A DNA stretch of 64,000 bases, taken from positions 744,001-808,000 of the forward strand of contig NZ_CP022347.1 in the NCBI RefSeq assembly GCF_002238335.1, read 5' to 3'. The DNA is from Campylobacter avium LMG 24591. GTDB lineage: Bacteria > Campylobacterota > Campylobacteria > Campylobacterales > Campylobacteraceae. The notes beneath the pieces are model-generated. The model was not told the DNA's origin. It saw nothing but the letters and a program-made list of their open reading frames with translations, and did no database searches. How positions within the stretch are numbered: the stretch's first letter is position 1; each line of letters opens with the position of its first letter. The position numbers and the translations under genes were made by a program. Shown here one piece after another: positions 53,347-63,678 of the stretch.

Positions 53347-53386
53347 GTTAAATTTTGTTATATTCTAAATTTTTAAGGGGTTGATT

Positions 53387-54913
53387 TTGTTTTTACAGTT
53401 TGATTTTACTTATACGAGTGATAATGATTTTTTTGAATACTTGCTTAGATACTACGCTAAGGATTATGAATACAGCTTGCAAAGAGAGGCTGATAATATA
53501 ATGCTTAAGGTAAGAGCTAGCGAGGCCGAGTTAGCAAGCTTTTGTGATAATTTTAATTTTATGGCAAATTCTTTATTTTTGCAAGGCTTTGATGTTAAGG
53601 CTGTTGAGGGCGAGTTTGAGCCTAGCAAAGAAAGCGATAAAGACTTTGTTAAGATGGATTTTCTAACGCAAAAAAATAGCGAGGCTTACAGGCAAAACCA
53701 AGACTTGCTAGACAACGAATGGGGCGTTTTTGTAAATGATTTATTATCCTTTGATGAAAAAGAGTATAAAAAGATAGAAAAATCAAATTTCACAGAGCTT
53801 TTAACGCAAAGCATAAGCAGCTTAAAAAGCGGTGCTTGTATTTTTATTAAAAATCATTTAGGACTTTATAAAATTTCTATTTTTGATAATCAAAATTTAC
53901 ATGATTTTTTAATGCCAAGTGATGTAAAGGCCTTAAAAACAGCTTTTGTGGCTTCTAATGAGAATTTAAAACTCCTAGCAAGCCTTGAAAAACCGCTTGT
54001 AAGATTAAAATTTTCTCAACCTTTTAGACAAAAATACGGACCCAAAAGTACCTTTTTTCCTGTTAAATTTGCTAACAATTTATTTTTATTTGCCTTGGGT
54101 CTTGAGCTTTTTAAAGACGATATTAAATTTTTAAGCTTTCAAAAACTTGAGCATTTTGCCGATGATTTTGAGGTTTTTGAGGAGAGCAAAAGGCTTGTTG
54201 TTGTAAGCGGCCTTGACTTTATCAACTCAAAAGCAAGAGATTTGATACTTAGCAAAGATGATAAAAACATGGCTAAGCTTTCATACATACTAAGCTCGTT
54301 TAAAGAAGATGCTCTTGTGCTAGAGCTTAGCAAGGAACATGATGACATTTTACTGATAGATAAGGAGATAAACATCCTAAATCTTTCCCTGCCAAGTTCT
54401 TTTAAAGAGCTTTATCAAGAGCTGTGTAGAGATGACACAGGCAAAAGACTTTTAAATAATTTTAAAAAAGAATTTGATGTTTTAGACGCAGATATCAAGG
54501 CTAAAAACAACTTTTTTTCTTTATTTGGCATAGTTGGTATGGTGCTTGGGCTTGATACTAACACGCATGAGGCTGCGAAAAAGCTTATAGAACTTTGCGA
54601 TACTAGCAGATTGGAACGCGGAGTTAGGATAGATTTTAAGCTAAAAGAGAATTCTAAGGATTTTGATTACATAAAAACCGTTCGTTCTGTGATGAGTTTT
54701 ATGTTGGCAGGAGTATCTAAAAACGACATAGCGTACGGGCTTATAGAAAGCTTGGCTTATTTTTTAAGAGATACTTATGATGAATTAAGACAAAAAGCAC
54801 AAGTAAAGATAGCTATAATAAGCGGTTCTTTGTTTGAAAGCAGGTCTTTAACAAGGCTTTGTATAAAACACTTAAGAGATATAAAACTTAGCAATGTTGC
54901 CTTGCGGGTTTAA
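53387..54913 (+). CDS. Degenerate HypF-like paralogue, function unknown
   Basis: 508 aa from the TTG at 53387 (AAGGGG 6 nt upstream; the TTG at 53381 has no spacing). No characterised family by simple motifs, but blocks match HypF encoded just downstream, in the same order: SSLKSGACIFIKNHLGLY (about 143) with HypF ALKEGKILAIKGIGGFH; NLKLLASLEKPLVRLKF (about 192) with EAKLLCSKEAPIVLLKA; FALGLELFKDDIKFLS (about 235) with LALGSELKNEFVIA; SLFGIVGMVLGLD (about 378) with SLGRIIDAFGSIAFD; IISGSLFESRSLT (about 478) with VLCGGVFQNKTLL. The N terminus is acylphosphatase-like in pattern but lacks GVGFRPF; zinc-finger CxxC pairs and HHxxH are missing. Probably non-catalytic. Overlaps hypF by 20 nt. The homology is inferred by eye. 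Confidence 0.7.
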   Translation: MFLQFDFTYTSDNDFFEYLLRYYAKDYEYSLQREADNIMLKVRASEAELASFCDNFNFMANSLFLQGFDVKAVEGEFEPSKESDKDFVKMDFLTQKNSEAYRQNQDLLDNEWGVFVNDLLSFDEKEYKKIEKSNFTELLTQSISSLKSGACIFIKNHLGLYKISIFDNQNLHDFLMPSDVKALKTAFVASNENLKLLASLEKPLVRLKFSQPFRQKYGPKSTFFPVKFANNLFLFALGLELFKDDIKFLSFQKLEHFADDFEVFEESKRLVVVSGLDFINSKARDLILSKDDKNMAKLSYILSSFKEDALVLELSKEHDDILLIDKEINILNLSLPSSFKELYQELCRDDTGKRLLNNFKKEFDVLDADIKAKNNFFSLFGIVGMVLGLDTNTHEAAKKLIELCDTSRLERGVRIDFKLKENSKDFDYIKTVRSVMSFMLAGVSKNDIAYGLIESLAYFLRDTYDELRQKAQVKIAIISGSLFESRSLTRLCIKHLRDIKLSNVALRV

Positions 54914-57092
54914 GATAGAGCTTTGCGGCCTAGTTCAAGGGGTTGGCTTTAGACCCTTTGTTTATAATTTAGCAAAAAAACATAAGCTAAATGGCGAGGT
55001 GTATAACGACAGCAAAGGCGTAGTTATCATACTTGCATGCGAGGAAAAGGAACTTGAGCTTTTTATAAAAGATTTAAGAAATTACAAGCCTAAGCTAGCA
55101 AGAATAGATAAGCTAGAATTTACAAGGCTAGAAAATTTAGACTACAAAGACTTTAAGATTACACCATCCAAGATAAATTTAAAAACTTCGGCCATCTTAA
55201 GCGATTATGCTTTATGTAAGGACTGCAAGCAGGAATTTTACGACAGCACAAATCCTCGTTTTAAGTATCCTTTCATAACTTGCACGCACTGCGGGGTAAG
55301 ATTTTCTATAATCAAAAGTCTTCCTTACGATAGAGCGAACACAAGCATGAGTGCTTTTAATATGTGCGAGTTTTGCAAACAAGAATACCAAAATCCATCA
55401 AACCGCCGCTTTCACGCACAGCCTCTATCTTGTCCTAAGTGCAAGATAAGCATTTACCTTAAAGATAAGGCTAAACAAGTGCTTTGTGAAGATAAGCAGG
55501 CCATAAGAAGCTGTGCCAAGGCTTTAAAGGAGGGCAAAATTTTAGCCATTAAAGGCATTGGCGGCTTTCATTTGGTTTGCGACGCCTTAAACAAAGAAGC
55601 TATAAAGGAATTAAGACTTAGAAAAAAAAGAGCCAAAAAGCCTCTAGCCATAATGTGTAAAAATTTGGATGAGGCCTTAAAGCTAGCCTTTATAGATGAG
55701 GATGAGGCGAAGCTGCTTTGCTCAAAGGAAGCTCCTATAGTCCTTTTAAAGGCTAAACAATGCCTTGAGCAAATAGCTTTTGAGAGTGATAAAATAGGCA
55801 TTATGCTAGCTTACAGCCCGCTTCATTTGCTTTTATTTGAGTATTTTCAAAACCCAATAGTAGCCACAAGTGCTAACATAAGCACAGAAAGCATTTTGTA
55901 TAAAGAGGATGATTTGCTTTCTAAGCTTGGCGATGTTTTTGATTTATATTTAGACTATGATAGAGAGATAATAAACCCAAGCGATGATAGTATAGCTCAA
56001 ATTTTTGATAAAAAGCCTATGTATTTACGCACCTCAAGGGGCAAAAGGCCGCAGTACATAAAGCTAGATAAGGAATTTAAAACGGCAAATGCCCTAGCTT
56101 TAGGCTCAGAGCTTAAAAATGAATTTGTTATAGCCTATGATGATAAGCTTTTGCTCTCTCCTTATTTGGGGGATATGAAAAGCTTGGCTGTGCAAGAGAG
56201 AATGAAAATTTTGCTTGATTTTTTTAAAAAAACTTACGATCTTAGCTTTGATTTTATCTTAGCTGATAAACATCCACATTTTGCATATGCTAAGAATTTC
56301 AAGCCAAATTTATTTATACAGCACCACTACGCACATCTTTGCGCCGTGCTTTTTGAGCATAAAATTTATGATGCTGTTGTAGCCTTTTGCTTTGATGGCA
56401 CCGGCTATGGAGATGATAAAAAAATTTGGGGTGGCGAAATTTTAAAGGCGTCTTTGAAAGAGTATGAAAGAGTAGGGCATTTTACAGAATTTAAGCTTAT
56501 AAATGCTGATATTAAAAATATACAAAATTTGGCTCTAGCCCTTATATTTAAGTGGAATTTGCAAGATGAGGCTGCTTATTTTTTGCAAAAAATAGAGGCG
56601 AAAAAACTTAGAAATTTAGAAAAAATTTACAAGCTTTCTAGCCTTTATACCACATCTTTAGGCCGAATTATTGATGCTTTTGGTAGTATAGCCTTTGATA
56701 TAGATGTGCTTGATTTTGAAGCACAGATTGGTCTTTTGATGGAAAATTACTATGATATTAATCTAAATTATAGCTATGAATTTGAGATAAAAAGTGGTGA
56801 AATTTGCTTTAAAAACGCCTTTAAAGCGGCCTTAAAAGATGATAAAAGGCATGTTAGCACCGGGCTTTTAAACGCCATAGCAAATTTGATAATCACTTAC
56901 TCAGCACAGCACAAACACACGCAAAACAAAGACATAGTCCTATGCGGCGGCGTTTTTCAAAACAAAACCTTGCTTAATATATTAAAAAGTAAGAATTTTA
57001 GCTTCAAAACAGGCTTTGAATTTCCGGTAAATGATAGCTCGATAGCCCTTGGTCAAATGGCACACTTTTTATACAAGCTAAATGATACATAG
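54894..57092 (+). CDS. hypF: Hydrogenase maturation carbamoyltransferase HypF
   Basis: 732 aa, near full length. Makes the cyanide ligands of [NiFe]-hydrogenase from carbamoyl phosphate with HypE. Acylphosphatase domain with GLVQGVGFRPF (12-22), two zinc-finger units (CKDCKQEF, CTHCGVRF, CEFCKQEY, CPKCK), YrdC-like domain (about 205-375, IKGIGGFHLVCDA) and Kae1-like domain with HHYAHLCAVLFEH (about 477), DGTGYGDDKKIWGGE and VLCGGVFQNKTLL. ATG at 54894 inside the upstream gene. hypB, C, D, E and A are not in the window. Confidence 0.95.
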   Translation: MLPCGFKIELCGLVQGVGFRPFVYNLAKKHKLNGEVYNDSKGVVIILACEEKELELFIKDLRNYKPKLARIDKLEFTRLENLDYKDFKITPSKINLKTSAILSDYALCKDCKQEFYDSTNPRFKYPFITCTHCGVRFSIIKSLPYDRANTSMSAFNMCEFCKQEYQNPSNRRFHAQPLSCPKCKISIYLKDKAKQVLCEDKQAIRSCAKALKEGKILAIKGIGGFHLVCDALNKEAIKELRLRKKRAKKPLAIMCKNLDEALKLAFIDEDEAKLLCSKEAPIVLLKAKQCLEQIAFESDKIGIMLAYSPLHLLLFEYFQNPIVATSANISTESILYKEDDLLSKLGDVFDLYLDYDREIINPSDDSIAQIFDKKPMYLRTSRGKRPQYIKLDKEFKTANALALGSELKNEFVIAYDDKLLLSPYLGDMKSLAVQERMKILLDFFKKTYDLSFDFILADKHPHFAYAKNFKPNLFIQHHYAHLCAVLFEHKIYDAVVAFCFDGTGYGDDKKIWGGEILKASLKEYERVGHFTEFKLINADIKNIQNLALALIFKWNLQDEAAYFLQKIEAKKLRNLEKIYKLSSLYTTSLGRIIDAFGSIAFDIDVLDFEAQIGLLMENYYDINLNYSYEFEIKSGEICFKNAFKAALKDDKRHVSTGLLNAIANLIITYSAQHKHTQNKDIVLCGGVFQNKTLLNILKSKNFSFKTGFEFPVNDSSIALGQMAHFLYKLNDT

Positions 57093-62131: not shown

Positions 62132-63163
62132 GTGGATTTTGAAACTTTATCTACTTTTGTTAGCGAGGATAATGTAGCAGGGACTAATGAAGAATACAAC
62201 CAACTTTATCTAAGTATGCAAGGCTTAGCAGAGGGTGAAGAAGAAAGCGTTATGGGCGATTCTGTCATTAGTGCTAAGGAGCCTGATTATAAAAAATTAA
62301 GTGATGTTTGTATAGAGCTTTGGAAAAGCACAAGAGATTTAAGAGTAGCTACATATCTTACCTTTGCAAATACCCAGCTTTACGGCTTGAATGGACTTTA
62401 TGATGGTTTAAGACTTATAGATTTTTTAGTAAAAAATTTGTGGGATGATATGTACCCACTATTAGATCCTGATGATGAAATGGATCCTACAGAAAGATTT
62501 AACATACTTCAAATTCTCTCTCCTAGTGATACGGGTGGAGGCATTTGCTTATTTTTAATTAAATTTAGAGATATAAAATTATTCTCCTCTTTAACTTATT
62601 CTTATAAAGACCTTTTGTTTGCTAAGGGAGAACTTGAAAATAGCGAGAGTGATTTAAATTTATCCTTGTTTGAAGCTGAATGTAAGAACGTTTCACAGGA
62701 TGAGTTAGCTCAAAAAATAGCCTTAGTAAATGATATTTTAACTGTCTTAGATTCAATAGAAAAAGAACTTTATGAAAAAACACAGCAAGCTTTTTATTTT
62801 ACTTTATTAAAGGATGATTTAAATTTTTTATTAAAATTTTATTCCTCTTTAAAGCCTGATGAAAACACGAATAATGATATAGATTTAAATAATGATACAA
62901 ATTTAAAGGAAACAAAGGAGCTTGTTAATACTATGAATATAAGTGATTTAAGCTCATATAACCCTAAAAATAGACAAGAAGCCTTGCTTCTTTTGCAAAA
63001 AAGTGCTGATTATTTCAGCAAACACGAGCCTAGCAATCCAATTCCATTTTTATTGCAAAGGGCTTTGAGAATGGCTGATATGAATTTTGTTGATTTATTA
63101 AAGGATATAGAACCAGGTTATGTTGATAGGATTAAAGATGTGCTTGGCATACCTAAAAACTAA
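62132..63163 (+). CDS. tssA: Type VI secretion protein TssA (ImpA N-terminal family)
   Basis: 343 aa, GTG start with AAGGG 8 nt upstream. N-terminal ImpA block: PDYKKLSDVCIELWKSTRDL, then LYDGLRLIDFLVKNLW and PLLDPDDEMDPTERFN, highly characteristic of TssA. The C terminus (NRQEALLLLQKSADYFSKHEPSNPI, FLLQRALRM) matches short TssA proteins. TssA caps the growing sheath and baseplate. An ATG at 62128 is in another frame and stops after four codons. First gene of the cluster seen here; tssB follows after 14 nt. Confidence 0.9.
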   Translation: MDFETLSTFVSEDNVAGTNEEYNQLYLSMQGLAEGEEESVMGDSVISAKEPDYKKLSDVCIELWKSTRDLRVATYLTFANTQLYGLNGLYDGLRLIDFLVKNLWDDMYPLLDPDDEMDPTERFNILQILSPSDTGGGICLFLIKFRDIKLFSSLTYSYKDLLFAKGELENSESDLNLSLFEAECKNVSQDELAQKIALVNDILTVLDSIEKELYEKTQQAFYFTLLKDDLNFLLKFYSSLKPDENTNNDIDLNNDTNLKETKELVNTMNISDLSSYNPKNRQEALLLLQKSADYFSKHEPSNPIPFLLQRALRMADMNFVDLLKDIEPGYVDRIKDVLGIPKN

Positions 63164-63177
63164 TTTAAGGAGATTTA

Positions 63178-63678
63178 ATGGCGAATAGTCAAAAATTTGT
63201 AGGTAAAAATAGGGCTCCAAGAGTTCAAGTTGAGTATGATGTTGAGCTTTATGGTGCCGAAAAGAAGGTAAATCTACCGTTCGTTATGGGCGTTTTATCT
63301 GATTTATCTGGTAAGTCAGAGATTAAAACTAAGGTTGATGATAAGAATTTCATAGATATTGATAGCTCAAATTTTAACGATGTTATGAAAAAGATTAAAC
63401 CAAGAGTTGCCTTTATGGTTCCAAATAAGCTTGATGAAAGCACTCAAATAGCTGTTGATATAAGCTTTGAAAATATGGATGATTTCTCTCCTGCTAAGAT
63501 AGCCAAAAAAGTAGATGGCTTAAAGCAAATTTTAGAGGCTAGAGAACAGCTTGCAAATCTTTTAAGCTATATGGACGGAAAGGCAGGAGCTGAAGAATTG
63601 CTCAACAAGATACTAAACGATGATGCCTTGTTAAAAGCTTTATCAGCAAAAGCAAAAGAAACAGAAACAAAAGAATAA
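63178..63678 (+). CDS. tssB: Type VI secretion contractile sheath small subunit TssB
   Basis: 166 aa, normal TssB (VipA/IglA) size. N-terminal NRAPRVQVEYDVELYGAEKKV and LPFVMGVLSDLSG are conserved sheath blocks, and the C terminus has the helical LEAREQLANLLSYMDGK region. Interlocks with TssC to form the contractile tube cover. AAGGAG RBS upstream. The tssC ATG follows the stop directly. Confidence 0.95.
   Translation: MANSQKFVGKNRAPRVQVEYDVELYGAEKKVNLPFVMGVLSDLSGKSEIKTKVDDKNFIDIDSSNFNDVMKKIKPRVAFMVPNKLDESTQIAVDISFENMDDFSPAKIAKKVDGLKQILEAREQLANLLSYMDGKAGAEELLNKILNDDALLKALSAKAKETETKE

What the first reader, a model, noticed from the sequence alone, without database searches (positions are those of the whole stretch)
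53387..57092. Degenerate HypF paralogue encoded directly upstream of, and overlapping, hypF
The 508-aa product at 53387 aligns by eye with HypF in at least five blocks in the same order, covering the YrdC-like and Kae1-like regions. It lacks GVGFRPF, the zinc-finger cysteines and HHxxH, so catalysis of carbamoyl transfer is unlikely. A retained, coupled pseudo-enzyme beside its active counterpart suggests a regulator, assembly partner or decoy in hydrogenase maturation. I know of no description of such a paired HypF system.
Basis: partly seen in the sequence, partly recalled or inferred. Interest (0 to 1): 0.75.

Follow-up and report, generated by a model that had tools for sequence, protein, structure and literature searches.

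The report
HydE, a catalytically dead HypF relative
The gene beside hypF is HydE, a protein already known to be needed for hydrogenase activity in Helicobacter but with no known role; it turns out to be an ancient copy of the maturation enzyme HypF that has lost its catalytic residues and travels with exported hydrogenases, so its function can now be tested directly.

Summary
Window 53387-54913 (+) encodes a 508-aa protein with the complete HypF architecture minus the zinc fingers. An AlphaFold2 model (pLDDT 94.5) has HypF crystal structures as its five best VIA-align matches. None of 177 family members carries HypF's main catalytic signatures. Divergent relatives still keep HypF zinc fingers, and all members form one clade: a pseudo-enzyme of single origin.

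By synteny this is HydE, last gene of hydABCDE in Helicobacter (HP0635), reported as required for hydrogenase activity, function unknown. I found no paper calling HydE a HypF paralogue.

HydE follows the Tat-exported hydrogenase, not HypF. Outside the window's family, 166 of 168 genomes with a strong small subunit HydA have HydE. Eleven genomes with HypF but no HydE all lack that HydA. Two genomes that kept HypF but have no HydA carry only HydE relics.

An orphan non-Tat small subunit in the same genome (probably 'HydA2') carries HydE's C-terminal domain. HybE is absent (0 of 150). I infer a dedicated assembly chaperone for the exported hydrogenase, probably acting on its small subunit (about 40%). 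The main rival is an adaptor docking the Hyp machinery on HydB. A decoy or regulator is unlikely.

The parts
53387..54913 (+). hydE: 508-aa degenerate HypF paralogue (TTG start; AAGGGG at 53375-53380)
   Evidence: ORF; conserved in 145/150 genomes of the family; AF2 model and HypF fold matches
53387..53647 (+). acylphosphatase-like domain (aa 1 to about 87), catalytic GVGFR lost; boundary approximate
   Evidence: hhalign over the HypF N-terminus; VIA alignment starts at model residue 1; 0/177 GVGFR
53759..54229 (+). YrdC/Sua5-like domain (aa about 125-281), ligand motifs lost; the zinc fingers that lie between it and the acylphosphatase domain in HypF are missing
   Evidence: VIA matches to Sua5/TsaC over 125-281; PDB HypF profile hit; motif counts
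54230..54910 (+). Kae1-like domain (aa about 282-508), metal-binding HHxAH and DGTGYG lost; HydE-specific motifs RSxMSFxLAG and GSLF
   Evidence: Kae1/TsaD matches over 291-508; PF22521 at aa 386-501; motif counts
54894..54913 (+). 20-nt overlap of the hydE 3' end with the hypF start, suggesting translational coupling
   Evidence: overlaps of similar size in most genomes of the genus
54894..57092 (+). hypF: intact carbamoyltransferase HypF, 732 aa, the only full-length HypF match in this genome
   Evidence: TIGR00143 662.9 bits over a cut-off of 466.1; search of own genome

Best explanation
The 508-aa protein is HydE. Shown: it is a HypF paralogue of single origin that keeps the HypF fold (acylphosphatase-like, YrdC-like and Kae1-like domains), has lost the catalytic motifs and here also the zinc fingers, and follows the Tat-exported membrane hydrogenase HydABC-D through the Campylobacterales. 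Reported by others: in H. pylori loss of hydE abolishes hydrogenase activity and nickel does not rescue it. Inferred: HydE is a hydrogenase-dedicated assembly chaperone in the cytoplasm. Its Kae1-like C-terminal domain would hold the apo small subunit HydA, keeping it from Tat export until HydB has its NiFe(CN)2CO site and has been trimmed by HydD, while the HypF-like body keeps the Hyp machinery close. In effect it would do the job of HyaE or HybE with a recycled HypF scaffold. Confidence by step: paralogue and HydE identity about 0.95; small-subunit chaperone mechanism about 0.4.
For: Fold and homology. Divergent long members keep zf-HYPF, hit the HypF HMM at 1e-19 to 1e-33, and by tblastn find HypF of unrelated bacteria, best listed E 7e-18. 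One clade, 100/100 support. Dead enzyme. HydE identity: H. cetorum hydA(Tat)-hydB-hydC-hydD-hydE and HP0635 as last gene of hydABCDE. Tracks HydA, not HypF: 166/168 against 0/11. Doubles with the hydrogenase; relics in G109 and G096, which have HypF but no HydA match. Small-subunit link: orphan non-Tat small subunit with a HydE C-terminal extension (extension alone HMM E 3.1e-17; hhalign 98.8%). HybE 0/150; no strong HyaE. Mutant phenotype: PMC7695850; membrane localisation stated in PMC4992972.
Against: No direct evidence of binding to HydA. The fusion involves a paralogous orphan subunit without Tat signal, not HydA itself, and was seen in two genera only. A large-subunit or HypE-docking role would also track HydABCD. 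The original mutant paper (Benoit 2004) was not available; its results are cited through later papers. The 1e-130 limit for 'strong HydA' was set after seeing the table. The HyaE search is blurred by thioredoxin-sized matches.
Confidence: 0.45

Rival explanations
1. HydE is a target-specific adaptor on the large-subunit side: as a dead HypF look-alike it docks HypE (as HypF does in the 3vti complex) or HypC-HypD onto apo-HydB, so that the Fe(CN)2CO unit reaches this hydrogenase.
For: The best Foldseek match is the HypF chain of the HypE-HypF complex 3vti, which is also third by VIA; adjacent to hypF in most families; hydE loss abolishes activity without nickel rescue.
Against: Present only with Tat-exported HydABC: absent in 11 genomes with HypF but without strong HydA, although hydrogenases there would need the same Fe ligands; the domain fusion is to a small subunit.
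Confidence: 0.3
2. HydE is a membrane-targeting or quality-control factor that acts after maturation, bringing assembled HydAB to the Tat machinery or to HydC.
For: PMC4992972 describes HydD and HydE as involved in localising the complex to the membrane; strict association with Tat-exported HydA.
Against: Not sharply distinct from the chaperone model; nothing in the sequence or model was found that points to the membrane, and nothing explains why a HypF fold would be used.
Confidence: 0.15
3. HydE is a regulator or decoy that binds HypF substrates or products (carbamoyl phosphate, carbamoyl-AMP) and tunes HypF.
For: Same fold as HypF and gene overlap with hypF.
Against: Ligand and metal motifs are gone across 177 members; reported as required for activity rather than modulating it; lost where HydA is lost while HypF stays.
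Confidence: 0.06
4. The gene is a decaying duplicate of hypF without function.
For: Catalytic motifs lost; long branch in the tree.
Against: Matches in 145/150 genomes of the family, nearly all without stops, and conserved over the order; a confident compact model; a reported loss-of-function phenotype of the H. pylori counterpart.
Confidence: 0.02

Closest known systems
HydE of hydABCDE in Helicobacter pylori (HP0635), the same family
   Same: Last gene of the hydA-hydB-hydC-hydD-hydE operon in Helicobacter (H. cetorum); recognised by the same profile across the order; Sulfurospirillum and C. showae loci bridge both arrangements with hydABCDE-hypF in one row.
   Different: In the window's genus hydE has left hydABCD (here at G000:C1 about 687.6-691.7 kb, no hydE behind it) and sits with hypF. 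Unrelated to the radical-SAM HydE of [FeFe]-hydrogenase maturation, which shares only the name (own knowledge).
HypF (carbamoyltransferase; 3vth, 3vti, 4g9i, 3tsp)
   Same: Same domain order and fold, VIA Z 15.8-17.8; divergent members also keep the HypF zinc fingers.
   Different: 12-16% identity over the VIA-aligned parts; all main catalytic signatures and, in the window protein, the zinc fingers are missing; separate clade on a long branch; no match to TIGR00143.
HyaE and HybE, Tat chaperones of hydrogenase small subunits in Enterobacteria
   Same: Proposed job only: guarding an exported [NiFe]-hydrogenase small subunit.
   Different: Unrelated families; HybE gave no match in 150 genomes, HyaE matches are thioredoxin-sized and at most 31.6 bits.

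Membership tests
HypF (active carbamoyltransferase, TIGR00143) | match over the curated cut-off of TIGR00143 | tested here: not met
   No NCBIfam hit for the 508-aa protein at E up to 10; the neighbour HypF scores 662.9 bits
HypF (active carbamoyltransferase, TIGR00143) | acylphosphatase signature GVGFR | tested here: not met
   0/177 family members, 102/105 HypF
HypF (active carbamoyltransferase, TIGR00143) | zinc fingers (zf-HYPF) | tested here: not met
   Absent in the window protein; kept in divergent long members such as L121, L123, L124
HypF (active carbamoyltransferase, TIGR00143) | Kae1-like metal-site motifs HHxAH and DGTGY | tested here: not met
   0/177 family members, 101/105 HypF for each
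HypF superfamily (fold and descent) | HypF fold with acylphosphatase-, YrdC- and Kae1-like domains in order | tested here: met
HydE of hydABCDE | same family as the last gene of hydABCDE in Helicobacter | tested here: met
   H. cetorum L224 6431-7969 directly behind hydD, profile E 8e-61; one clade
HydE of hydABCDE | co-occurrence with HydA of the exported hydrogenase | tested here: met
   166/168 genomes with strong HydA outside the family; own genome has hydABCD with Tat signal
HydE of hydABCDE | required for hydrogenase activity | not testable with these tools
   Reported for H. pylori (PMC7695850); no Campylobacter mutant found
HybE/HyaE small-subunit chaperones | sequence membership of PF11939 or PF07449 | tested here: not met
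   The 508-aa protein matches neither family in Pfam at E up to 10

The most novel reading that the evidence does not exclude
HydE is a new class of hydrogenase maturation factor: a dead HypF turned into a small-subunit chaperone that gates Tat export of the membrane-bound [NiFe]-hydrogenases of Campylobacterota in place of HyaE/HybE, and the orphan HydA2 (small subunit plus HydE C-terminal domain) is a natural chimera of client and chaperone with a cytoplasmic role of its own.
Probability: 0.3. Interest if true: 0.72.

Novelty: new variant of a known kind. Interest (0 to 1): 0.55.

Why it matters
HydE has been known for about twenty years as essential for hydrogenase activity in H. pylori, with no function assigned. 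Recognising it as a dead HypF with a confident fold, a strict client (exported HydABC) and a natural small-subunit fusion turns an unknown into specific binding tests. It also adds a clear case of a maturation enzyme whose duplicate became a non-catalytic, client-specific partner.

Tried and rejected
A first family profile (fam.hmm) and alignment A1 contained one or two small-subunit fusion proteins (L073, L074); the apparent full-length match of those fusions is therefore circular. A clean profile from A4 was used for the claims on the fusion and for the motif counts. For the co-occurrence (profile A1) leakage is unlikely: genomes with HydA but no HydE (G258, G301, and G159, G255, G348 with weaker small subunits) gave no match, and 18 divergent loci were re-read with the clean profile; 16 of them have HydE near the large subunit, and in L282 and L283 none was seen in the stretch read. 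Some weak 'HydE' matches (G150, G237, G291, G266, G352) may be cross-hits of HypF. Where the split from HypF lies relative to other phyla cannot be decided: support for Campylobacterota HypF as a group is weak (44/91). Papers: no held paper uses 'HypF-like', 'HypF homolog' or similar phrases; subscription papers, including Benoit 2004, are not held.

Full report
1. The observation. The frame at 53387-54913 (+) is open, starts at TTG 53387 behind AAGGGG (53375-53380) and ends in TAA at 54911-54913; hypF starts at ATG 54894, a 20-nt overlap. The neighbour is an intact HypF (TIGR00143 662.9 bits) and the only full-length HypF match in the genome. The 508-aa protein hits Pfam HypF_C_2 just over its cut-off (27.7 against 27 bits, residues 386-501) and nothing in NCBIfam.

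2. It is a HypF paralogue. Relatives occur in 145 of 150 genomes of the family. In nearly every Campylobacteraceae locus that I read with both genes held, it lies directly upstream of hypF. Profile against profile, the clean HydE set and Campylobacterota HypF align over 515 columns (local probability 99.0, E 2.4e-18). A profile of 75 members finds HypF of solved structures (3vth, E 4.4e-14; 4g9i, E 4.7e-7). The AlphaFold2 model is confident (pLDDT 94.5, pTM 0.90). Foldseek's nine best hits are all HypF, and the five best VIA matches are HypF with Z 15.8 to 17.8; three of these span model residues 1-508. Single domains match Sua5/TsaC (residues about 125-281) and Kae1/TsaD (about 291-508).

3. 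It is a dead enzyme. By motif count over 177 members and 105 HypF: GVGFR 0 against 102, HHxAH 0 against 101, DGTGY 0 against 101, GGVFxN 0 against 101, TSAN 0 against 91. The zinc fingers are lost in the window protein, but divergent members of about 580 to 650 aa keep them (zf-HYPF E 5.1e-16 in L121) and hit the HypF profile at 1e-19 to 1e-33. The long L121 form finds HypF of unrelated bacteria by tblastn, best listed E 7e-18. In a tree of 48 sequences the family is one clade with 100/100 support on a long branch. This is a graded series from HypF to the short form, with one origin.

4. It is HydE. In Helicobacter cetorum the same family directly follows hydA (Tat signal), hydB, hydC (a cytochrome-b-like protein) and hydD (HycI protease). 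In Sulfurospirillum small subunit, large subunit, HydE and hypF lie in one row. In the window's genome hydABCD lie at about 687.6-691.7 kb without a hydE behind them, and hydE-hypF lie in the window. [quoted passage not shown] RefSeq calls two long forms on plasmids 'hypothetical protein'.

5. Its client is the exported hydrogenase. Over 227 genomes of the order outside the family: of 168 with a strong HydA match (E up to 1e-130, a limit chosen after seeing the table) 166 have HydE; the two exceptions, G258 and G301, are 88% and 85% complete. Eleven genomes have HypF over the cut-off but no HydE, and none of them has a strong HydA. Eight genomes have HydE without a strong HydA, several of them incomplete. 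In the family, G096 and G109 keep HypF, have no HydA match and carry only a HydE relic with stops; G041 and G107 have no match for HydE or HydA. Genomes with two hydrogenase operons have two HydE (L114, L115, L116, L147).

6. A fusion points to the small subunit. The window's genome holds a second small subunit at C1:1119027-1120664 (-), without a Tat motif and with no large subunit in the 8 kb read around it. Its C-terminal extension matches the HydE profile on its own (E 3.1e-17); the extensions of 30 such proteins match HydE by hhalign (98.8%, E 1.2e-16) and do not match HypF. Similar proteins occur in most genomes of the genus and in genus g7. It is probably the gene called hydA2 (Cj1399c) in C. 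jejuni (PMC7048796); I did not compare it with that record. HybE is absent from 150 genomes of the order (E. coli control positive); HyaE gave only short thioredoxin-sized matches.

7. Mechanism. Shown: descent, fold, loss of catalytic motifs, association with HydABCD. Reported by others: need for hydrogenase activity. Inferred: a cytoplasmic chaperone that holds HydA through the Kae1-like domain until HydB is mature. The main rival is an adaptor bringing HypE or HypC-HypD to HydB; the same comparative data would fit it except that it does not explain the fusion.

8. Novelty. The gene is known; its nature as a dead HypF is, as far as the held papers show, not described, though Pfam already flags part of it. 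All 79 loci returned by the scan of 84,980 species were labelled as Campylobacterota lineages or, in one case, only 'bacterium', but the patterns came from Campylobacteraceae, so wider occurrence is not excluded.

Noticed in passing
L268:3025-4710 (-) = G000:C1 about 1119024-1120709, own genome, outside the window: Orphan [NiFe]-hydrogenase small subunit without Tat signal, fused at its C-terminus to a HydE-type Kae1-like domain; probably hydA2. Seen in most genomes of the genus and in G018, G025, G031.
   Followed up: partly
L142:6669-7811, L144:5956-7098: Genus g7 has a shortened HydE of 380 aa directly upstream of hypF, besides the small-subunit/HydE chimera elsewhere in G018.
   Followed up: partly
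L046:8664-12038, L049:2369-6865: HypF of 1124 and 1498 aa with long repetitive, polar insertions between and inside its domains; no Pfam intein domain found.
   Followed up: partly
L061:6912-8433, L166:7001-8522 (C. jejuni subsp. jejuni 414): hydE is split into two frames (107 and 394 aa) in one C. jejuni genome.
   Followed up: no
L114, L115, L116, L147: Two hydrogenase operons in a row, each with its own, quite different HydE (about 514 and 550 aa).
   Followed up: partly
L260:7001-11171 (Sulfurimonas paralvinellae plasmid), L261 (Sulfurovum mangrovi plasmid): hydE carried on plasmids next to hydrogenase and hypF genes; in Sulfurovum mangrovi an acylphosphatase gene lies just before a shorter hypF, as if HypF were split.
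   Followed up: no
G153: A 99% complete genome with HydA and HydE but only a background HypF match (9.6e-7).
   Followed up: no
window 62132-63678: Type VI secretion genes (ImpA_N and VipA proteins) at the window's end.
   Followed up: no
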